A stretch of 21,129 bases of DNA from a virus, in the IMG/VR virus record IMGVR_UViG_3300032020_000178, positions 1 through 21,129 of that record; one strand, 5' to 3'. The notes below the pieces were generated by a model, which made no database searches, was not told the DNA's origin, and saw only the letters and a program-made list of their open reading frames with translations. A program made the position numbers and the translations under genes. Positions 5,427 through 19,215 of the stretch are shown one piece after another (within the stretch, counting starts at the first letter, position 1; each line of letters starts with the position of its first letter).

Positions 5427-6302
5427 TCACGAAGTAGGAACTGTCGCGTCCGACTGAATTTCAAACAACCAGTTGCCTGCACTCCGCTCGCCGTAGGCGT
5501 ACTCGTCGTACAGGATCAGCTCGTCGCCCCCACCGCCGCGCTTCTCGTTGCGGACGGTGACGGCACGCGGGCTGCGCCCTTGCACCAGGATGAGCGCCTC
5601 CTTGGCGAAGACCCCGCCCTTGGCGTCGGGCGTACTGTCAACGGTGATGTTCCCGTCCTCGAAGACCTGTGCGCCCCCGATCTGGCCCCGGAAGCCCTCG
5701 CGGAACACGCGGGCCGTCTCGCCCTCGCCCACGACGTAGGTGCCGATACCAGCCTTCAGCTCGTCCTCGATGTCCTTGATCTGATACCCGTGGAGGACGC
5801 AGCGGTAAGGCGGGTTGCCCGGCTCCGTCACGTTCGAGGATATGCGCCGCACCGCCGCTGCGATGTAGCCCGAACTAAGGGTCGTGCCGGTGCCGCACAG
5901 CGATGTGGTGGCACCGTCTATAGCCGTCAGGCCATCCTCGTCCTTCAGCCGCTGGATAGCCTTCTGCGCCAGTCCGCCCAACTGGGCTAGGCCCTTCGGG
6001 TTGATGCGGACCTTCACGCGGTCAGTGATGAAGGTGTGGATGCCTGTAACGGTCGGGGTGATGGTGAGCAGCGTGTCTGAGAGTTGCTGCGGGTTGTCAA
6101 GTTCGGTCTGTTCGGTGATCGCCATCGCTGTGAGGGCGGCGTAACTGATCTCCAGCCATGAGAGGCCGATGCCCTTGCCGAGCGTCTGCCTATCACAGAG
6201 GGCAGGAACCTCGCCCTCGTACTCACGCACACTCCTGGCAGACGACCGAACGCTGTCCAGGGAGTCTGCAAGAGACCCAGTGGTTGTCCATCCAACTGCC
6301 AT
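5427..6302 (-). CDS. Major capsid protein
   Basis: 291 aa; ATG at 6302 with AAGGAG six bases upstream, nine bases after the scaffold stop. Size, position directly after an acidic scaffold-like gene, and composition fit an HK97-fold major capsid protein. Supporting features are an N-terminal arm (1-40), mixed alpha/beta middle with a conserved-looking YRCVLHGYQIKDIEDEL segment (about 164-181), a GGAQVFEDGNI loop, and a C-terminal section reading KGGVFAKEALILVQGR...LILYDEYAYGERSAGNW. The motif of a strand with 'alilv' followed by an arm returning as 'yaygers' is typical of HK97-like capsids in which the C-terminal domain ends near the axial region. Which HK97 subfamily it belongs to cannot be told by eye. 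Confidence 0.85.
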   Translation of the reverse strand: MAVGWTTTGSLADSLDSVRSSARSVREYEGEVPALCDRQTLGKGIGLSWLEISYAALTAMAITEQTELDNPQQLSDTLLTITPTVTGIHTFITDRVKVRINPKGLAQLGGLAQKAIQRLKDEDGLTAIDGATTSLCGTGTTLSSGYIAAAVRRISSNVTEPGNPPYRCVLHGYQIKDIEDELKAGIGTYVVGEGETARVFREGFRGQIGGAQVFEDGNITVDSTPDAKGGVFAKEALILVQGRSPRAVTVRNEKRGGGGDELILYDEYAYGERSAGNWLFEIQSDATVPTS

Positions 6303-6312
6303 GTCTTACTCC

Positions 6313-7221
6313 TTATGCGAGTCCTAGCCGCCGACGCGCTGCCTGGACTTCCTTCTCGGACACGTCCTCGCCAGCGCCGTGTCGGCGTATGGTGTCTTCG
6401 TCGGTTGATGGCTTTGCGGCCGCCCCTTCGGGCTGCTTGGGCGGGATCGCAGCCTGTAGTTTGCGAAGCCCATCCTTCTTGCCCTCTAGGGCCGCCTGAC
6501 CCGCCGCCAACTTGTTCAGGTCCACTACCGCCATCTGATAACCCTGTTCAAGGGCCTTTTCGGTAAGGAGGCCGAACATCTCTTTGAGGAGTGGGGTGCG
6601 GCTGTTTGCGCGATTGCTGGCCTTCAGGGCAGTCGAGAGACGTTCGGCTTCGCCCTCGCCAAAGGTCGCCGTTACGATGTCTTGGCCGGTGAACGCTTCC
6701 TGAAGCTCGCGGTTCCAGGTCATCGCCTGGCCCGCGACCCAGGCATCGCGGTACTGGTCAATCGCCTTGTAAAGCGTGCCCGTGTCGAGGTGGGCTGTAC
6801 CGTCCTCTATGCCCTTCTGCGCGGCGTTCACGACGGAACCGATCTGCCCGATGGCGGCCCGACCGGCTTCCATGACGCGGCTCGTGTCCTCCTGTTGGGC
6901 ACGCAACCGCTCCTGCTCGCTTGCCACCGTGTCCGTTGCGCTCTGCCGTTCACGTCGCAGGAGTTCCTTGAACGTCTCTGACTCCTGCGCCCGCCTGCGG
7001 ATGATCTCGTCTATGACCTCTTGTGGAAGGTCGGCGATGACATCCTCTGGCTTCTCAGGCGGAGCCTCTTTGAGGTGCTCCTCTGCTTCCTCCGGGGCCT
7101 CTGCCTTAGTCTCCGGCGGCTCTGGTGCCTCAGTCCCCGCAGGAACCTCCGGCTCCTCGGTCTCCAAATCCTTCAGCATAGCCTCTGAAAGCTCTGGCAC
7201 TTCCGCTGCTACGTTGACCAT
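6313..7221 (-). CDS. Capsid scaffolding-like protein
   Basis: 302 aa from the ATG at 7221, which has GGGAGGAG directly upstream; a TTG four codons earlier overlaps that SD and is not the start. The N-terminus is very acidic and Pro/Glu-rich (about residues 7-60). A long charged helical region follows (about 65-120, e.g. RAQESETFKELLRRERQSA), then a globular-looking helical part, and a basic C-terminal helix ending VQAARRRLGLA. Acidic, helical, with a basic C-terminal tail that contacts the capsid, and located immediately upstream of the MCP: this is the classic scaffold profile. It is transcribed from, or just beyond, the promoter-hairpin cassette at 7238-7310. No protease domain is visible. 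Confidence 0.8.
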   Translation of the reverse strand: MVNVAAEVPELSEAMLKDLETEEPEVPAGTEAPEPPETKAEAPEEAEEHLKEAPPEKPEDVIADLPQEVIDEIIRRRAQESETFKELLRRERQSATDTVASEQERLRAQQEDTSRVMEAGRAAIGQIGSVVNAAQKGIEDGTAHLDTGTLYKAIDQYRDAWVAGQAMTWNRELQEAFTGQDIVTATFGEGEAERLSTALKASNRANSRTPLLKEMFGLLTEKALEQGYQMAVVDLNKLAAGQAALEGKKDGLRKLQAAIPPKQPEGAAAKPSTDEDTIRRHGAGEDVSEKEVQAARRRLGLA

Positions 7222-7237
7222 GACTCCTCCCAAATAG

Positions 7238-7273
7238 AAAAGAGGCCGGTCCCCGAAAGGACTGGCCCCCTTC
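7238..7273 (-). terminator. Hairpin with U-tract at the 5' end of the scaffold-capsid transcript
   Basis: On the minus strand the stem GGCCAGTCC (7267-7259) pairs with GGACCGGCC (7252-7244) with one G-U pair. The loop contains UUCG, and TCTTTT (7243-7238) follows. It can end transcripts coming from the portal-HNH region. It also begins one or two bases after the predicted start of the promoter at 7282-7310, and it closely resembles the hairpin at 18845-18874. Confidence 0.7.
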
Positions 7274-7281
7274 TGACGGAT

Positions 7282-7310
7282 ACTCTACGGTAGTAGTGCT
7301 ACGCTGTCAA
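7282..7310 (-). promoter_or_regulatory. Sigma-70-type promoter for scaffold-capsid operon
   Basis: Minus-strand TTGACA (7310-7305), a 17-base spacer and TAGAGT (7287-7282). Seven bases lie between the -10 box and an A at 7274, the expected first base, giving a transcript starting AGAAGGGGG. The -35 box lies inside the 3' end of the upstream HNH gene. It shares perfect -35, spacer length, TAnnGT -10 form and CAG start region with the promoters at 18883-18911 and, less fully, 20066-20094. Confidence 0.65.
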
Positions 7311-7619
7311 TCCCTGATGGCGACGTGCCCAAGCCCGACGCTGACCGAGACTGATGCGCTGATTCCAACCCTCATGATGTGGCCCGCGCGGCTTACCTGC
7401 CTCAAGACGAGCGTGCAACACGTAGTTCAGGAGCTCCAAATTCTCAGGCCGGTCATCGTCCCTAACTGCGTTTATGTGATGGCAGACCTCACCTGGCACT
7501 AAAAGCCTACCGACCTTCTCCTCCAGTACCATGCGACCCCTGAGACGCCAGCGACCATCGGGACATTTAACCCGAGCATGACCGTGGACAAAATGCGTCG
7601 TCCCGATAGATTCCGTCAT
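7299..7619 (-). CDS. Small HNH endonuclease
   Basis: 106 aa; ATG at 7619. The core reads GRWRLRGRMVLEEKVGRLL, then EVCHHINAVRDDDRPENLELL (H47, H48, N50, N60). This is the common small-phage HNH pattern of an EExxGR helix followed by HH-x-N and an ENL helix. The His usually seen just before the first helix (HRxVxE) is replaced (GRMVLEE), so activity may be altered. A basic C-terminal tail (RRAWARRHQG) probably contacts DNA. There is no SD, and a strong promoter 8 bases upstream of the ATG would begin transcription on the start codon itself. The gene sits between the 1424-aa gene and the scaffold gene as a separate homing-type insertion. Confidence 0.85.
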   Translation of the reverse strand: MTESIGTTHFVHGHARVKCPDGRWRLRGRMVLEEKVGRLLVPGEVCHHINAVRDDDRPENLELLNYVLHARLEAGKPRGPHHEGWNQRISLGQRRAWARRHQGLTA

Positions 7620-7659: not shown

Positions 7660-10600
7660 CTACCGTACCTGTGGCAGCGTTAGGGGCTGCAACCCTTCCG
7701 TACCGATACCTTCTGGCATCGTGAGCGGCGTGAGACCTGGAAGACCGCCACCGCCACGCTCACGGGCTATATCCGCCTTGCTCGGCGGCTTGTAGCCCAA
7801 CTCGATCAGCAGTTTGGTCTTGTCGGGATTCCTCCTGCGGTAGCGCTCCTTCTCCCGTTCGATCAGGTCTTGAAGTCGGCTGTACTCTCGCGGGTAGTCA
7901 CGGTCGCTAACGTACTCAGGTCCCAAGCCCTTAGCCGCCGCATTTGCCTGGGCCTCCTGCGTGGCCTGTGTTCTGTAGGCCGAGTAGGACGGCGCGGTGA
8001 GCCTCAGGTGCTCTTTGTTCGCCTCGTACACGGTGTCGGGGATGTCAAAGTACTCCTGAAGCTGCTTCATCTGTTCTCGGCGTTCTTTGACCCAAGGAAC
8101 TGTTAGCCGTAGGCCAGTGTTATCGTCCAGCGTTTTGAGATCGGCATCGCTGAGTCCACCCTCCCAAGCATTAAGCGCCTCGTTGAGAGCGTGCTGATCC
8201 GTGACCTGGCCCATCGGACCACGGTAGGTATCGTATAGCTGAGCCCGTTGAGCCAGCAACAACTCAGCCCGATTGTAGGGTTCAATCGTGCCAGCTAGAA
8301 GACCAGCGTCGCGCTCCTTCCGCTGGCTTATGATCTCAGCGAATCGCGGGTCTTGCTCAATCCTATAGAGAGACGCCGAAAGGGCGATGCGAGCGTTTGT
8401 CAGGGCGTCGCGTTTCTCCTCACCAGTGGCAGTCGCAGGGACAGCCGCCAAGACCTCGTTGTAGTCGTTATAGATGTCCGTGTACTCCGTCCGATACAAC
8501 GCCCACGGTTCGCCTCGCTCGACGCCCTCTTTAGTCACACGATCTGTCTCTGCCTGCAACTCAGGATGATTGAGGTAGAACTGTTGGGCTTCCTCTGGTG
8601 TCAGTTGACGGAACTCCTTGCCGTTAAACTCTCGCCGCGACACTGCGTTTCTCAGCTCACCCAGTCTTTGCGGGGAGACGTTTAGGCCAAGAGCTTGAAT
8701 GATCGCTCCTGGTATCCCAATCCGCTGCTGCTCGCCCCAGAACCCCGCCGCAGGGATAGGGCTGACCTGTTCCGCTAAGAACGTGCCAACCTGCGCGGGC
8801 GTCTGTAGAGTCTCGCCACCGAAGGCTTCCTCACCAGCGATGATCTGCCCACCAACCGAGGGTATCTGACCGAGACGGCTGGCGAGTGCGAACTTAGGAT
8901 CGCCGATCATCCGCAGTGGCGTGTCGGCCTGACCAAGCAGGTCCAGGTACTCAGTCCTGCCCTGTGGCCCCTTGAACGGGAGTTCAGGACGCAGAAAGGC
9001 CGTGTTATACCCGCCGCCCATAAACGGCAGATACTCCTGTGGGGGCCTCGGCTTGCCCGTGACAGGATCGATGCGACCCTCCTTCGGAGCAAACGGTATG
9101 TAGGAACTGAGCGGCAACGGCTTGCCGGTTACGAGCAAGTTCACCATGTTCGATAGGGCAATAGTATTGATGAGGATCGCACCAAAGAACGCCTTTTGGC
9201 GGAAGGGCATCCTAATCCAACTCTCCTGTTCAGCCATAGAAAACAGACCCGTCCGCACCACGTCTCTAGTGGTGGGGTTCCTCAATACACTCTGCCATGC
9301 GGGCAAAGAGGAAAACCGCTCGTTCATATCTAGGGCGACCTTCACCGCAGCATCATCGAGCGACATGCCGCCCTTCATGTGACTCTTGACCAGCTTCTCC
9401 CCGATGTCCAGCATGTACTCGCGGTGGGCATTAACAAAAGTGCCCGAACCAAAAGCCTTCAACATCCTGCCAACGAAGGGGATGCGGTATAGAAAGAACT
9501 CCTTTGCCATCGCCGCATACTCAGGGCCGATGAATTGTAGACCAGCCTGGGTGTTGATGCCGTGTTTGATGAGAGCCTGCCGCACAGGATTAGCCAAATC
9601 CCACCGACGCATCTTCGCGTCAAGGCCAGGTATAAAGCCCCTGCCGAACGCCTTTGGGATGGTTGCGACCATGCTTACATCCCGTGCCTTTGTGGCAGTC
9701 GCCAGCACACGCATACTGTAGTCGAAGTGCTGAAAGAGGCCACCAAAGGTCTTGACAAACTTGAGGGCGGCTACACTCTGCCGCAGGACATTCAGGGGCA
9801 CGTTGGAGGAGAAGGCAGAGATACCGAAATGATCCTCTAGCGCCTTAGCTATCTCATCGGGGACAACCAAGCGGTCCTTGCCGCCCATTCCCACAACACC
9901 CTTCGGCGTCCGCCAGCCAGCCAAATCCTCAAGGCTGGATGCTGGACGAAGAAGGTTACGGGACTTCAGGTTATCAATCATCACCCGTTGTTGGCGGTAG
10001 AGGATGCCTTGATAGATGCGCCGTTGCGCCATCGCAATAGGATCGCCTGTGTAGAGGGCCAGGTCAGGCTTCTCATAGATGATGTCGGCCAGCGTACCCT
10101 CTAGCTTGCGCGTCTTGGTAAAACCAGGCTTCAGGCCAACAGGTCTGCCGCGAAATAGCCGCGAAGTGGGGCGCACAGGAGCCCTGACGAACTCATGGGG
10201 CCAGTAGTATTCACGGAAACTGAAGTCTGGGACTGCCTGACGGAGAAGCGCGGTCTCCTGATCCATGATGCCCCGTAGCCCCCGCGCAAGGGCTTCCTCT
10301 TCGGGAGACAGTTGCAGCAGTCGAAGAGCGTCGTCCAGCGGCCCCTCATAGTCCAGGGCGAGGACAACGCCTGGGATGTCCCGCGTAGGACCAGGAGCGA
10401 ACTTCAGACCAGACGCATTTGCCTGCTCCTGCATCTGGCGTACCGTCTGATCAAGAGAGTCAAGATCAGCATTCACACGCCCGCTGTACTCACGCACCAC
10501 CGTTCGCTGGGCCTTCTCAGATTTGGGTGCGCTCGCCCAGTAGTCCAGCACCTCATCCGCTGTCGTAACCGGTGCAGGCGGGGTCATGGCCTCTTCTGGC

Positions 10601-11934
10601 ACGGCCATCTCTGCGCCCGCCACTGGCCGTACACGCGCCCTGGCTAACTCTTCGGCAGGTGTTAGCGGTTTTACCGCGGGCGCTTCTGGGATAGCGACCC
10701 TTGCGTCTGCGGCGGCTTCGGGTCCCTCCCGCCCCATCGCCTGCGCGGCCTGTTTCTCGCGGGCAATCAGTTCGAGGTTCTTCGCACCTGCTGTAAGATC
10801 GTTAACCAGCCACGTTGCTGGTTCATCACCGTGAGCCGCAACGAACTCGACCTCGAACTGGCGGTCACGGTAACGCTGTTGCAAGGTTCTGGCGAGCGAT
10901 TCTGCATCGGCCTGTCCGGTCTCAGGGAATTGCTGGACGAGTTTCCCCCAGCGCGGAACCTCTGGCATAGCCGCCTGCGCGGCCTCCTCTGGGACGAGGG
11001 CACCCATGCGGAGACTCGGCACAGCCTCTTTGATAATGCGGGTAGCACCCTCTCTCGTGATCTTCCCACCTGGTACAGCCAACCTAAAAGCCTGCCCGAT
11101 CCTCTGGAAGTCCCCTGGCAGTAGTGGGATCGCCATCTCCGCGAGAACCTGCGTCGCCATGGGCTGCGTTTGCAGAAACTCCCGTGCCTCCTCCGTAGTC
11201 ATGGTGAAGGCTTTGGCGAACTTAGCGGGTGATGGCTTCTGAAACTCCCACTCACCAGGTCGGAAGCCCAGGGCTTCGCCGATCATCACGCCACGTCCAG
11301 CCAGGGGCGCTATGGCCTGTTCCTCTAGACCCGCCGCTGCCTCTAAGACAAGGGGCGGGACGAACGCCTGCGGCTCGCCACTGAGGAACCTGGGCAGCCA
11401 GCCCTGCGGCGGCGCGGGGTCAAGGACGGTGATCTCATCGAGTAACGCCCCACGATCCGTACCCCGTTCGCTCTCAGAGGCCATCCGCCAGTAGTCATCG
11501 GGACGTAGGTTGCCGCGTTCTCTAAGGTGAGCGGCGGCGATAGTCAGGCCGTCATACCGCTTGGCGGTGGCCTGCCCGAAGGGATCGTCCTTGATGATGC
11601 CCTGGTCAATGGCCGTCTGGAATGTCTTTTCTAGATGTCCAGGGTCAGCGTACTCGGTGAGGAAGTCGGCAAAGGTGTCTGGCGACACCGGCTGGTCGGG
11701 GTAGGTCTGCGAGAAGTCGGTGTAGGCCCTGTTGAGCGCAACAAGACCCGCCTCGTCCTTGACCTGGCGCACCACGCCTGTCGTCGCCCACTCTGGGACG
11801 AGGGACAGGAGGTTGTTCATGGAGCCGAGACTGCGGGCGCGGGCTTCCTCGGCCTTACGTTTCTCCTCGTCTTTGTCCGCCTTTAGGCGCTGGGCCAGGA
11901 TCAGGTCCACCGTTAACATGGTATACTTACTCAC
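7660..11934 (-). CDS. Very large virion protein, candidate internal/ejection (polyvalent-type) protein
   Basis: 1424 aa; starts at GTG 11934 or, equally possible, ATG 11919; neither has a clear SD. N-terminal 1-45 is a charged helix; 400-460 is an Ala/Pro/Glu linker. A long helical core spans about 540-1080. It includes KFVKTFGGLFQHFDYSMRVL (725-744), DAAVKVALDMNERFSSLP (861-878) and a hydrophobic helix (915-935). Regions 1080-1390 are charged and helical. The C-terminus has two related peptides, GLTPLTM (1400-1406) and GLQPLTL (1414-1420). No lysozyme, protease or polymerase motif is visible. Size, helix content and virion context resemble ejected internal proteins or the large 'polyvalent' phage proteins of the LPD38 type. 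The resemblance to LPD38 is an impression, not a match. A tape measure is less likely because of the short linkers and low coiled-coil content. Confidence 0.85.
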   Translation of the reverse strand: MSKYTMLTVDLILAQRLKADKDEEKRKAEEARARSLGSMNNLLSLVPEWATTGVVRQVKDEAGLVALNRAYTDFSQTYPDQPVSPDTFADFLTEYADPGHLEKTFQTAIDQGIIKDDPFGQATAKRYDGLTIAAAHLRERGNLRPDDYWRMASESERGTDRGALLDEITVLDPAPPQGWLPRFLSGEPQAFVPPLVLEAAAGLEEQAIAPLAGRGVMIGEALGFRPGEWEFQKPSPAKFAKAFTMTTEEAREFLQTQPMATQVLAEMAIPLLPGDFQRIGQAFRLAVPGGKITREGATRIIKEAVPSLRMGALVPEEAAQAAMPEVPRWGKLVQQFPETGQADAESLARTLQQRYRDRQFEVEFVAAHGDEPATWLVNDLTAGAKNLELIAREKQAAQAMGREGPEAAADARVAIPEAPAVKPLTPAEELARARVRPVAGAEMAVPEEAMTPPAPVTTADEVLDYWASAPKSEKAQRTVVREYSGRVNADLDSLDQTVRQMQEQANASGLKFAPGPTRDIPGVVLALDYEGPLDDALRLLQLSPEEEALARGLRGIMDQETALLRQAVPDFSFREYYWPHEFVRAPVRPTSRLFRGRPVGLKPGFTKTRKLEGTLADIIYEKPDLALYTGDPIAMAQRRIYQGILYRQQRVMIDNLKSRNLLRPASSLEDLAGWRTPKGVVGMGGKDRLVVPDEIAKALEDHFGISAFSSNVPLNVLRQSVAALKFVKTFGGLFQHFDYSMRVLATATKARDVSMVATIPKAFGRGFIPGLDAKMRRWDLANPVRQALIKHGINTQAGLQFIGPEYAAMAKEFFLYRIPFVGRMLKAFGSGTFVNAHREYMLDIGEKLVKSHMKGGMSLDDAAVKVALDMNERFSSLPAWQSVLRNPTTRDVVRTGLFSMAEQESWIRMPFRQKAFFGAILINTIALSNMVNLLVTGKPLPLSSYIPFAPKEGRIDPVTGKPRPPQEYLPFMGGGYNTAFLRPELPFKGPQGRTEYLDLLGQADTPLRMIGDPKFALASRLGQIPSVGGQIIAGEEAFGGETLQTPAQVGTFLAEQVSPIPAAGFWGEQQRIGIPGAIIQALGLNVSPQRLGELRNAVSRREFNGKEFRQLTPEEAQQFYLNHPELQAETDRVTKEGVERGEPWALYRTEYTDIYNDYNEVLAAVPATATGEEKRDALTNARIALSASLYRIEQDPRFAEIISQRKERDAGLLAGTIEPYNRAELLLAQRAQLYDTYRGPMGQVTDQHALNEALNAWEGGLSDADLKTLDDNTGLRLTVPWVKERREQMKQLQEYFDIPDTVYEANKEHLRLTAPSYSAYRTQATQEAQANAAAKGLGPEYVSDRDYPREYSRLQDLIEREKERYRRRNPDKTKLLIELGYKPPSKADIARERGGGGLPGLTPLTMPEGIGTEGLQPLTLPQVR
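11919..11927 (+). promoter_or_regulatory. Extended -10 promoter for the lone plus-strand gene
   Basis: Plus-strand TGGTATACT: a TG motif at 11919-11920, one base, then TATACT at 11922-11927. No good -35 box is present, as expected for extended -10 promoters. An A lies eight bases after the -10 end (11935), and the SD follows at about 11943. The element is inside the first codons of the divergent 1424-aa gene. Confidence 0.5.
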
Positions 11935-17105: not shown

Positions 17106-18458
17106 CTACCACGCCCCGATAGCCTGCTTCTCCTTGCGAAGCATCTCATTTCGTACATCGTCTAGAGTGAGAGGTTGCAGGCCGCCCCAGTCGAAGAGTC
17201 CTGGTCCCTGCACGGCCCTCTTCTGCCTCTCTTCGGCGTAGAACCCACTCTCCTCATACCCCACAATCCCATACCTGAGAGCACTAGGATAGTGGTCGTC
17301 AGCGGGCACCAGGCTATCGGAAAACGACTCACCGAGATTCTGAGGCTTGTGTCGGTGGGATCGCAGTTCCCTCAGCCCGTTAGGGTTGCGTAGGGTGTCG
17401 ATGTGGATGAGGTTGTCGCGGAAGTATTGCTGGACGATCCTGACGCCCTGCTGCACGTCCTTAACCGGGCAGGGGCGCACGTCGAATCCCTGGGCGCGGG
17501 CCGTAAGGATGAACGACTCAGCCGTGGTCTCACAGAACCAGGCAGCGATGCCGTACTTCTCCTGAAATCCCTGCATGGCGATGAAGAGATCGGAGATGCC
17601 AACCCGTCGCTGGTAGAACTCCTCTGGCACCCATAACTGCCCCTTGTCGATCCCCATCGGCACGAGTACGGAGGGCGATATGTCGCCAAGGTCAATACCC
17701 CCTACTCCCAGGGAGAATGTCGGTGTCCTAAAGGGAGTCCAGAAGTTGCCCTCGTCAAACTGAGGATAGACCAACCCCTCGAACAGCGTGTACTTGCCGA
17801 GAAGTTCCTGCTCCTCAAAGTCCGTGCCCCGGTACTCGTCCTCCATGTCCTCGATGTAACCTTTAGGGAGATGCTTACGGTTCTCGTAGATTGAGGTCTC
17901 GAAGACCTTGTAGCCAGGTTTGCCCTCCTCACCAAAGACACCGAAGGACCAGTCATACCCCTGCGGGGTTCCAGTAGCCCACATACTGTTGTCCATGCCC
18001 TCCGGGGCTGGACGGCGCTTGGCACCGAGCGCGATCCTCCAGGTCTGGTAGGGGCAGTAGGCGTACTCGTCAAACCAGATGTCGTTGGCCTCCAGAGACC
18101 GCGTAACATTCGGGTCGGAGGCCGTGTAGAACTCCACGAACGAGCCGTTGACGAGTACGAGTTTCTGCGGGGGGCTGCGGCTGAAAGACTCGATGTGGTC
18201 TGGGTTCAGCCACTCAAGGACGGTCTGGATCACGCCGCCCTCAAGTTTGGGGTAATCGGGGGCGAGGATGAGGCCCTTCGTCATGGGCCAGTTCCATCTG
18301 CGTCTGAGCATCCGAGCCCACCCGGAGGTAGTCTTGGAGCACCCCCGTCCCCCGCGCCAGAGGAGAAACGGCGTCTCATTGTCCATCACGAAAGCCTCTT
18401 GCTTGGGAACGTCGCCCTCGCGCTCCCCTACATCTAGACGGAGGACCTTGGACTTCAC
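17106..18458 (-). CDS. terL: Terminase large subunit (ATPase-nuclease packaging motor)
   Basis: 450 aa from the GTG at 18458, in a GTGA overlap with the terS stop and with GAGG seven bases upstream. A longer frame upstream is a shadow of terS. ATPase motifs: Walker A-type WRGGRGCSKTTSG (34-46), Walker B DIWFDEY (126-132, D130/E131) and coupling motif WATGTPQG (160-167). RNase H-type nuclease: GIDLGD (D256), an acidic WFCETTAES segment (E310) and a final ADDHYPSALRYG (386-397) with D388. All are in the usual order and length for TerL. Walker A has Ser where Gly normally precedes the catalytic Lys. The C-terminal tail holds GLQPLTL (426-432), also found in the 1424-aa protein. It packages DNA through the portal. 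Confidence 0.95.
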   Translation of the reverse strand: MKSKVLRLDVGEREGDVPKQEAFVMDNETPFLLWRGGRGCSKTTSGWARMLRRRWNWPMTKGLILAPDYPKLEGGVIQTVLEWLNPDHIESFSRSPPQKLVLVNGSFVEFYTASDPNVTRSLEANDIWFDEYAYCPYQTWRIALGAKRRPAPEGMDNSMWATGTPQGYDWSFGVFGEEGKPGYKVFETSIYENRKHLPKGYIEDMEDEYRGTDFEEQELLGKYTLFEGLVYPQFDEGNFWTPFRTPTFSLGVGGIDLGDISPSVLVPMGIDKGQLWVPEEFYQRRVGISDLFIAMQGFQEKYGIAAWFCETTAESFILTARAQGFDVRPCPVKDVQQGVRIVQQYFRDNLIHIDTLRNPNGLRELRSHRHKPQNLGESFSDSLVPADDHYPSALRYGIVGYEESGFYAEERQKRAVQGPGLFDWGGLQPLTLDDVRNEMLRKEKQAIGAW

Positions 18459-18802
18459 TCTCCCGCCTCTTCGACTTCGGTTGCCTCGCCCTCTATGATG
18501 CCGGTCTTTAGCTGGTCCATAGGTCTTACGCGCGTGATGATACCCCTTTCCGCAACGGCCATGAGGATGAGGGGCGGCTGCCTCTCGCCCGTGTACTTGA
18601 TCTCCTGCGGCGGCCTCCCGTACAGTCTGTCCTCCGCTTCCTTCATGCACAGGTGGCAGCCCTTCTCCACGTGGGCGCGGCGCATCTGGGCGATCTTGTA
18701 GGCCACCGGCCCATAGTAGTCACGCACGATGTCGTGAACGTCCGCATCGCCATGCCGGAAGGGATTACCCGACCCTATGGGCCGTCCGCCTTTGTTCGTC
18801 AT
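18455..18802 (-). CDS. terS: Terminase small subunit
   Basis: 115 aa; ATG at 18802. The N-terminus reads MTNKGGRPIGSGNPFRHGD, a Gly/Arg-rich style common in small terminase subunits. It is followed by helices with VRDYYGPVAYKIAQMRRAHVEKG and then EAEDRLYGRPPQEIKYTGERQPPL, a segment typical of phage TerS-like proteins before the C-terminal acidic tail. It lies directly upstream of terL. TerS recognises and positions the genome for cutting. No good SD precedes the ATG; two hairpins fill the leader instead (18810-18844 and 18845-18874). Assignment rests on position and style, not on a scored match. Confidence 0.85.
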   Translation of the reverse strand: MTNKGGRPIGSGNPFRHGDADVHDIVRDYYGPVAYKIAQMRRAHVEKGCHLCMKEAEDRLYGRPPQEIKYTGERQPPLILMAVAERGIITRVRPMDQLKTGIIEGEATEVEEAGE

Positions 18803-18809
18803 ATTCAGG

Positions 18810-18844
18810 GGCGGGCCTGGGAGGGCCAGTCTCTCAGGCCCACC
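18810..18844 (-). ncRNA. Second hairpin in the terminase leader
   Basis: A 10-bp stem with one G-U pair: on the plus strand GGCGGGCCTG at 18810-18819 and CAGGCCCACC at 18835-18844, with a 15-base loop. It lies between the UUCG hairpin and the terS start, eight bases upstream of the ATG. It would form in the leader RNA and leaves no SD exposed. No equivalent sits at the capsid cassette. Confidence 0.5.
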
Positions 18845-18874
18845 AAAAAGAGGCCAACCGAAGCTGGCCCCTTC
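18845..18874 (-). terminator. UUCG-loop hairpin with U-tract ahead of terS
   Basis: Minus-strand GGCCAGC-TTCG-GTTGGCC (18869-18852), extended by AGAAGG/TCTTTT pairing, then TCTTTTT (18851-18845). It is a standard intrinsic terminator for the small-gene operon to its right. It is also at the predicted 5' end of the terminase transcript. Same design as 7238-7273. Confidence 0.8.
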
Positions 18875-18882
18875 TGGGGAAT

Positions 18883-18911
18883 ACGATACGGGGGTAGGGT
18901 TAGGTTGTCAA
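18883..18911 (-). promoter_or_regulatory. Sigma-70-type promoter for terminase-portal operon
   Basis: Minus-strand TTGACA (18911-18906), 17-base spacer and TATCGT (18888-18883); the predicted start is A at 18875, giving AGAAGGGGCCAGC. The -35 box touches the stop of the small membrane peptide gene. Its spacer shares CTA-C-CTAC--CCG with the promoter at 7282-7310. Confidence 0.65.
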
Positions 18912-19031
18912 GTCCCACCACACGATGGTCGTCAGGCCCAACACAACGAAGAGTACCGGGGCTACGAGGCCGCGCATCACTTCCCCGTCATCGGAGGCCC
19001 CGCCGATGCACAAAAGGTACGCCTTCGTCAT
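18900..19031 (-). CDS. Small single-helix membrane peptide
   Basis: 43 aa from ATG 19031 (GGGG six bases upstream), or 25 aa from ATG 18977 (GGGG five bases upstream, ten bases after the previous stop). Both give one strong hydrophobic helix, GLVAPVLFVVLGLTTIVWW, and a short DLTT tail. The longer form would overlap the preceding gene by 44 bases and its extra residues resemble a shadow of it, so the short form may be correct. A one-helix peptide of this size could be a holin-like or host-membrane peptide, but nothing identifies it. It is last in its operon, with the terminase promoter's -35 box just past its stop. Confidence 0.35.
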   Translation of the reverse strand: MTKAYLLCIGGASDDGEVMRGLVAPVLFVVLGLTTIVWWDLTT

Positions 19032-19215
19032 CCTCGTCCCCGTATCCCATCCGCCAGCCGTCACAAGTCTTGTCGCCGCAGTCGCATGGCCGTGGTCTCC
19101 GGCCACGCTCATGCAGAACCGCAACAGTGACTCCGCTTCGCCTCGCGTATGCCCTCTCGAACAGGGAGGCGGTGAGTAGACCACTCTTGAGACGACGCCA
19201 CCACATTCTAACCAT
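18988..19215 (-). CDS. Hypothetical Cys-rich basic protein, 75 aa
   Basis: ATG at 19215 is preferred: GGGGGAA lies five bases upstream; a GTG one codon earlier is possible. TGATG overlap with the upstream stop. The N-terminus is aromatic and basic (VRMWWRRLKSGLLTASLFERAYARR). The middle holds CDCGDKTCDGW, three closely spaced Cys that could bind zinc with one more ligand, followed by MGYGDEDDEG. The product resembles small accessory zinc-binding proteins. It is co-directional and coupled with the regulators upstream. I do not recognise a family. Confidence 0.6.
   Translation of the reverse strand: MVRMWWRRLKSGLLTASLFERAYARRSGVTVAVLHERGRRPRPCDCGDKTCDGWRMGYGDEDDEGVPFVHRRGLR

What the first reader, a model, noticed from the sequence alone, without database searches (positions are those of the whole stretch)
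7238..7310. Promoter-plus-hairpin cassette, copy 1 (capsid operon)
Seen: TTGACA-17 bases-TAGAGT, then a terminator-like hairpin that starts one base after the predicted first base (7274, sequence AGAAGG). The same design is at 18845-18911. Aligned by eye, the two copies share TTGACA, CTA-C-CTAC--CCGTA in the spacer and -10, CAGAAGGGG at the start, UUCG in the loop and GGCCTCTTTT after the stem. Known: intrinsic terminators end transcription; 5' stem-loops can protect mRNA; some phage RNAs (HK022 put) near the promoter make polymerase ignore terminators. Inference: these are late promoters under attenuation or antitermination control, or simple back-to-back terminator and promoter for adjacent operons. 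The conservation of the whole unit, not just each half, favours a shared control system.
Basis: partly seen in the sequence, partly recalled or inferred. Interest (0 to 1): 0.62.

Follow-up and report, generated by a model that had tools for sequence, protein, structure and literature searches.

The report
Phage promoters with built-in start-site terminators
In an uncultured phage and its one known relative, the promoters in front of both the DNA-packaging genes and the capsid genes are each followed, almost at the first transcribed base, by a stop signal for transcription, so these genes may be held off until something lets RNA polymerase pass; this is a compact variant of a known kind of phage gate, and only its anatomy is shown here.

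Summary
On the minus strand, TTGACA-17-TAGAGT (7310-7282) is followed by a GC-rich hairpin (7273-7238) with a U-rich tail, beginning at the predicted first base (7274). A second copy lies at 18911-18842 before the terminase genes. The only relative found (G001, IMG/VR; TerL 69% identical) has the hairpin at both orthologous places: terminase (TTGACA-16-TATCAT, hairpin 8 nt after the -10) and scaffold (TTGACA but poor -10, hairpin about 14 nt further on). Searching both phages with copy 1 returns the other three copies as the best non-self hits. In the 21 kb window and the 40.7 kb relative these four hairpins are the only ones with a positive terminator score. Best reading: a boundary and gate. 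A consensus host-type promoter is blocked at once by an intrinsic terminator, which also stops upstream transcription. Because no RNA precedes the stem in three of four copies, leader-peptide or alternative-fold attenuation is excluded there; control would have to act on RNA polymerase (Q-, P7- or put-like). No antiterminator was identified. Rivals: plain compaction, or a 5' mRNA-protecting hairpin. Anatomy strong; mechanism about 0.42.

The parts
7305..7310 (-). -35 hexamer TTGACA, unit 1 (scaffold/capsid operon)
   Evidence: 6/6 consensus
7282..7287 (-). -10 hexamer TAGAGT, unit 1, 17-nt spacer
   Evidence: 4/6 consensus
7274..7274 (-). predicted transcription start (A of AGAAGG), 8 nt after the -10
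   Evidence: inferred from spacing; not mapped
7238..7273 (-). intrinsic-terminator-like hairpin, unit 1; core 7269-7242, U-rich tail TTTTCTAT from 7241
   Evidence: -22.8 kcal/mol, terminator score 16.2
6313..7221 (-). scaffold-like gene (ATG at 7221, preceded by GGGAGGAG), first gene downstream of unit 1
   Evidence: ORF; positional counterpart L005:4009-4890 in G001; no Pfam/PHROG match; name from gene order
5427..6302 (-). major-capsid-like gene
   Evidence: relative in G001; name from gene order
7299..7619 (-). HNH endonuclease gene upstream of unit 1; its stop codon TAG (7301-7299) lies in the promoter spacer
   Evidence: PF13392 1e-6
18906..18911 (-). -35 hexamer TTGACA, unit 2 (terminase operon)
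   Evidence: 6/6
18883..18888 (-). -10 hexamer TATCGT, unit 2, 17-nt spacer
   Evidence: 4/6
18847..18874 (-). intrinsic-terminator-like hairpin, unit 2; predicted +1 at 18875; U-rich tail TTTTTGGT from 18849
   Evidence: terminator score 16.1
18810..18844 (-). second leader hairpin GGGCCUG...CAGGCCC of the terminase operon, also present in G001
   Evidence: -25.2 kcal/mol, z -4.9 in window; -25.1, z -1.8 in G001
18455..18802 (-). small-terminase-like gene downstream of unit 2
   Evidence: ORF; positional counterpart L002:9715-10062; name from position
17106..18650 (-). terminase large subunit (ORF as listed; homologous part starts near residue 66)
   Evidence: phrog_5653 1.5e-10; 69% identical to G001
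18900..19184 (-). small upstream ORF with hydrophobic C terminus, stop codon TAA (18902-18900) in the spacer of unit 2
   Evidence: a small ORF with a similar ending lies upstream of ter in G001

Best explanation
Each unit is a boundary-plus-gate element for a structural operon. A consensus host-type (TTGACA/TATAAT-like) promoter sits in the short gap after the upstream stop codon, and an intrinsic terminator begins at, or in one copy shortly after, its first transcribed base. The terminator ends transcription arriving from upstream genes and should also stop most polymerases that start at the promoter itself within about 40 nt. The terminase and the scaffold/capsid genes would then be expressed fully only when polymerase is made resistant to termination, or by a basal read-through fraction. 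Shown: the promoter-then-hairpin anatomy, U-rich tail, two copies, conservation at both loci in a relative, absence of other strong terminators. Inferred: actual starts and stops, that transcripts from the promoter terminate, and that a polymerase-modifying antiterminator relieves it.
For: Anatomy and folds. Orthologous hairpins at both loci of G001; the scaffold hairpin keeps 15/15 pairs although six of them changed, one on both sides. Only positive-scoring terminators in either phage, all on the coding strand, all next to a promoter-like site before a structural operon. U-rich tails in all four (5-6 T in 8), not required for a merely protective hairpin. Promoters match host consensus, so without a block the late genes would be on constitutively: the logic of lambdoid PR'-tR' (PMC6606751) and of Xp10, where P7 lets host polymerase bypass intrinsic terminators preceding late genes (PMC6624301). 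Unrelated phage G002 has the same order (stop codon, TTGACA-17-TATAAT, hairpin, gene) before a tail gene.
Against: No antiterminator gene found in the proteins tested; the window is a 21 kb fragment. The G001 scaffold copy has a poor -10 and its hairpin starts about 14 nt further downstream. Spacer sequence, where a Q-like protein would bind, is not shared between the phages nor between the two G001 copies. Termination efficiency of a hairpin this close to a start was not measured or looked up. In unselected viral DNA terminators are not enriched for a promoter just upstream (4/97 against 11/291 at displaced places), so no general rule supports it. Only one relative exists in the collections searched.
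Confidence: 0.42

Rival explanations
1. Plain compaction: the hairpin is the terminator of the upstream gene, and the downstream promoter happens to occupy the stretch that must separate a stop codon from a working terminator. No regulatory link; the downstream operon lives on read-through.
For: Upstream stop codons lie at or just before the -35/spacer in the window copies and the G001 scaffold copy; stop-to-stem distance is about 25-29 nt in the window, close to the 27-30 nt beyond which a terminator escapes ribosome repression (PMC4824070). The order recurs in unrelated G002.
Against: The order promoter-then-terminator makes the promoter's own transcripts pay the cost, yet is kept at 4 of 4 loci; no other gene boundary in either phage has a strong terminator. 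In G001 ter the upstream gene stops about 51 nt before the stem.
Confidence: 0.32
2. 5'-terminal stem-loop that stabilises late mRNA: the transcript begins as a blunt, base-paired triphosphate end resistant to RppH/RNase E or RNase J; terminator likeness is secondary.
For: In three of four copies the stem starts within one or two bases of the predicted +1; base-paired 5' ends are poor substrates for RNase E, and the Bacillus RppH needs at least two unpaired 5' nucleotides (PMC3997798).
Against: U-rich tail kept in all four copies; in G001 scaffold the hairpin begins about 13 nt into the predicted RNA.
Confidence: 0.19
3. A source of short stable RNAs (35-45 nt) that act in trans, for example as decoys.
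For: Promoter and terminator together predict two short, similar hairpin RNAs.
Against: No target or partner seen; no Rfam family; units always precede structural operons.
Confidence: 0.04

Closest known systems
Lambdoid late promoter PR' with terminator tR' and Q antiterminator
   Same: Host-type promoter of the late operon followed by an intrinsic terminator, so that expression depends on termination resistance
   Different: Here the terminator is at about +1 to +40 rather than further downstream; no -10-like pause element in the first transcribed bases; no Q gene identified; two separate structural operons each carry a unit
Xp10 P7 system
   Same: Intrinsic terminators precede late genes and host polymerase must bypass them
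   Different: P7-like gene not found; terminators here are fused to their own promoters
HK022 put RNA
   Same: Hairpin RNA at the start of a phage transcript; terminase leader has two hairpins
   Different: Capsid leader has one hairpin; these hairpins carry U-rich tails; no Rfam match
5'-terminal stabilising stem-loops (ompA, papA type)
   Same: Stem begins at or next to the 5' end in three of four copies
   Different: U-rich terminator tail, and one copy is not 5'-terminal

Membership tests
Intrinsic (Rho-independent) terminator | GC-rich hairpin followed at once by a U-rich tract | tested here: met
   Scores 16.2, 16.1 (window), 20.8, 18.2 (G001); no other positive hairpin in either phage
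Intrinsic (Rho-independent) terminator | RNA ends mapped in the U-tract | not testable with these tools
   needs RNA 3'-end data
Lambdoid PR'-tR'/Q system | host-type promoter of a late operon followed by an intrinsic terminator | tested here: met
Lambdoid PR'-tR'/Q system | -10-like sigma-dependent pause element in the initial transcribed region | tested here: not met
   first transcribed bases are AGAAGGGG(G)CC in three copies; requirement from PMC6606751
Lambdoid PR'-tR'/Q system | Q binding element (direct repeat) between -35 and -10 | tested here: inconclusive
   window spacers share 11/17 bases but G001 spacers resemble neither these nor each other
Lambdoid PR'-tR'/Q system | Q gene | tested here: inconclusive
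   no Q family hit; G001 has a sigma region 4-like 127-aa protein (PF04545 1.9e-8), a lead only; AlphaFold model poor (pLDDT 46)
HK022 put RNA | two adjacent stem-loops, about 70 nt | tested here: not met
   capsid leaders have one hairpin; only the terminase leaders have two; definition from PMC9378689; no Rfam match
Leader attenuator (leader peptide or alternative fold) | RNA upstream of the terminator stem that can form an antiterminator or be translated | tested here: not met
   stem begins at predicted +1/+2 in three copies
5'-terminal stabilising stem-loop | stem within about 2-4 nt of the 5' end | tested here: inconclusive
   predicted for three copies, not for G001 scaffold; starts are not mapped
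Xp10 P7 antitermination | P7-like polymerase-binding protein | tested here: inconclusive
   not seen in family scans of the proteins tested; no direct P7 query was run and the window is a fragment

The most novel reading that the evidence does not exclude
A phage late switch in which the terminator is fused to the transcription start itself, so the same hairpin closes upstream operons, holds back its own promoter, and, once polymerase is modified (possibly by a sigma region 4-like phage protein), becomes a blunt 5' cap-like end that protects the late mRNA.
Probability: 0.1. Interest if true: 0.7.

Novelty: new variant of a known kind. Interest (0 to 1): 0.4.

Why it matters
If transcripts from these promoters really stop within about 40 nt, the two units would be an extremely compact form of a late-gene gate, one that leaves no room for leader-peptide or RNA-switch control and so points to a polymerase-modifying factor in an otherwise unannotated phage group. 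If not, they are a tidy case of how compact genomes overlap a stop codon, a promoter and a terminator.

Tried and rejected
Pattern scan of viral contigs for TTGACA-17-TANNNT-AGAAGGGG: 85 stretches, nearly all without a hairpin, so chance. Wider searches for relatives by TerL and portal (alignments and degenerate DNA patterns) returned only G001; L098 is a chance motif match; distant TerL contigs L092-L094 showed no unit. No relative in genome contigs and no portal match in phages. Chance co-occurrence rejected. L024/L062 promoter-hairpin rejected: the promoter-like site overlaps the end of a gene and the locus was selected by the pattern. A mutually exclusive pairing of the 5' arm of hairpin 1 with the loop CUGGCCC of hairpin 2 in the terminase leaders was considered but lies downstream of the terminator, so it cannot prevent termination as the RNA is made. 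Sigma region 4-like protein of G001: structure prediction too poor to compare folds. Literature searches for a promoter with a terminator at its start site in phages found no direct precedent in the open-access library; most subscription papers are not held, so this is weak evidence of novelty.

Full report
The window is an IMG/VR fragment of 21,129 bases, GC 0.61, from a tailed phage whose recognisable structural genes lie on the minus strand: small terminase-like, TerL, portal-like, a 1424-aa protein, an HNH endonuclease, scaffold-like, capsid-like. Most of these names rest on gene order and on a relative, because few proteins match any family.

The reported element is real. On the minus strand TTGACA (7310-7305), a 17-nt spacer and TAGAGT (7287-7282) are followed by AGAAGGGGGCCAGUCCUUUCGGGGACCGGCCUCUUUUCU, where A7274 is the expected start; the stem runs from 7273 to 7238. 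The second copy, TTGACA (18911-18906), TATCGT (18888-18883), hairpin 18874-18847, precedes the terminase genes. The promoter halves match at 75% over 44 ungapped bases.

Conservation. A search of 2.9 million viral contigs returned one close relative, G001 (IMGVR_UViG_3300032931_000221, 40,734 bases), with TerL 69% and portal 66% identical. Before its terminase genes lies TTGACA-16-TATCAT, seven bases, AGAAGGGGGCCAGCC GGCG GGCTGGCC TTCTTATA. Before its scaffold gene, directly after the stop codon of the 1424-aa-protein counterpart, lies TTGACA and a hairpin CAGGAAGGGGCCAGACC TTTA GGGGTTTGGCCCC TTTCATTT, but with a poor -10 and the hairpin about 14 nt further from the -35. Using copy 1 as query against both strands of both phages, the three best non-self hits are the other three units (scores 25, 22, 15; next 13). 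Between the two scaffold hairpins all 15 pairs are kept although six pairs changed, one of them on both sides; two sequences are few, so this supports rather than proves the fold.

Chance. With a d'Aubenton-Carafa-type score written from memory and implemented here, the only hairpins with a positive score in the window (both strands) are the two units (16.2, 16.1), and in G001 the two units (20.8, 18.2). In 40 dinucleotide-shuffled strands only two hairpins reached 16. Among 281 strong promoter-like sites in the window and about 90 viral loci, a terminator-like hairpin at 2-14 nt past the -10 occurred in the two window copies, G001 terminase, L024 (selected by the search pattern) and L079. Terminators in general viral DNA are not enriched for a promoter just upstream (4/97 against 11/291 at displaced positions), so four of four in these phages is specific to them. 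L079 belongs to an unrelated AT-rich phage (G002) with a perfect TTGACA-17-TATAAT followed by a terminator hairpin between two tail genes; the order therefore recurs independently at least once.

What it does. Because the stem begins at or next to the predicted +1 in three copies, there is no RNA before it for a leader peptide or for an alternative fold that could stop the terminator from forming. If read-through is controlled, it must be by a change in polymerase, as with Q, P7 or put, or not at all. The promoters resemble the host consensus and so would be active throughout infection unless blocked; a terminator directly after the start is the block. The same terminator would end transcripts from upstream: upstream stop codons lie at or just before the promoter, giving 25-29 nt from stop codon to stem in the window, near the 27-30 nt beyond which a terminator escapes repression by the ribosome (PMC4824070). 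I therefore prefer a combined boundary and gate, at 0.42, over plain compaction (0.32) and a 5' protective hairpin (0.19). Starts, stops and any antiterminator are inferred.

Comparison. Lambdoid PR'-tR' has the same logic, but the -10-like pause element needed for Q (PMC6606751) is absent here, and the spacer similarity of the window copies is not shared by G001. HK022 put is two stem-loops of about 70 nt (PMC9378689); only the terminase leaders have two hairpins. Xp10 P7 lets polymerase bypass terminators preceding late genes (PMC6624301), the nearest functional analogy. G001 encodes a 127-aa protein with a sigma region 4 domain (PF04545, 1.9e-8); the Q protein of phage 21 also folds like sigma region 4 (PMC6606751), but sequence comparison with solved structures did not find that Q and the model was poor, so this is a lead only.

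Limits. One relative; a fragmentary window; no transcript data; the terminator score is a recalled formula; the host is unknown.

Noticed in passing
window 7656-7619, minus strand: TTGACA-18-TATACT promoter whose expected start falls within a base or so of the ATG of the HNH gene, so its mRNA may be leaderless; in G001 no HNH gene lies between the 1424-aa-protein counterpart and the scaffold gene.
   Followed up: partly
window 18844-18810, minus strand; L002:9669-9708: A second strong hairpin GGGCCUG...CAGGCCC in the terminase leader of both phages, with a loop CUGGCCC that could pair with the 5' arm of hairpin 1.
   Followed up: partly
L006:5293-5676, minus strand (G001): 127-aa protein with sigma-70 region 4 domain, downstream of the endolysin gene; candidate late regulator.
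   Followed up: partly
L100:6313-6153, minus strand (G002, IMGVR_UViG_3300027906_000306): Unrelated AT-rich phage with stop codon, perfect TTGACA-17-TATAAT promoter, terminator hairpin and ATG of a tail gene in the same order.
   Followed up: partly
L002:5941-6780, minus strand (G001): Tyrosine integrase (PF00589), so at least the relative may be temperate.
   Followed up: no
window 7660-11934, minus strand: A 1424-aa phage protein without any Pfam match, possibly an injected virion protein.
   Followed up: no
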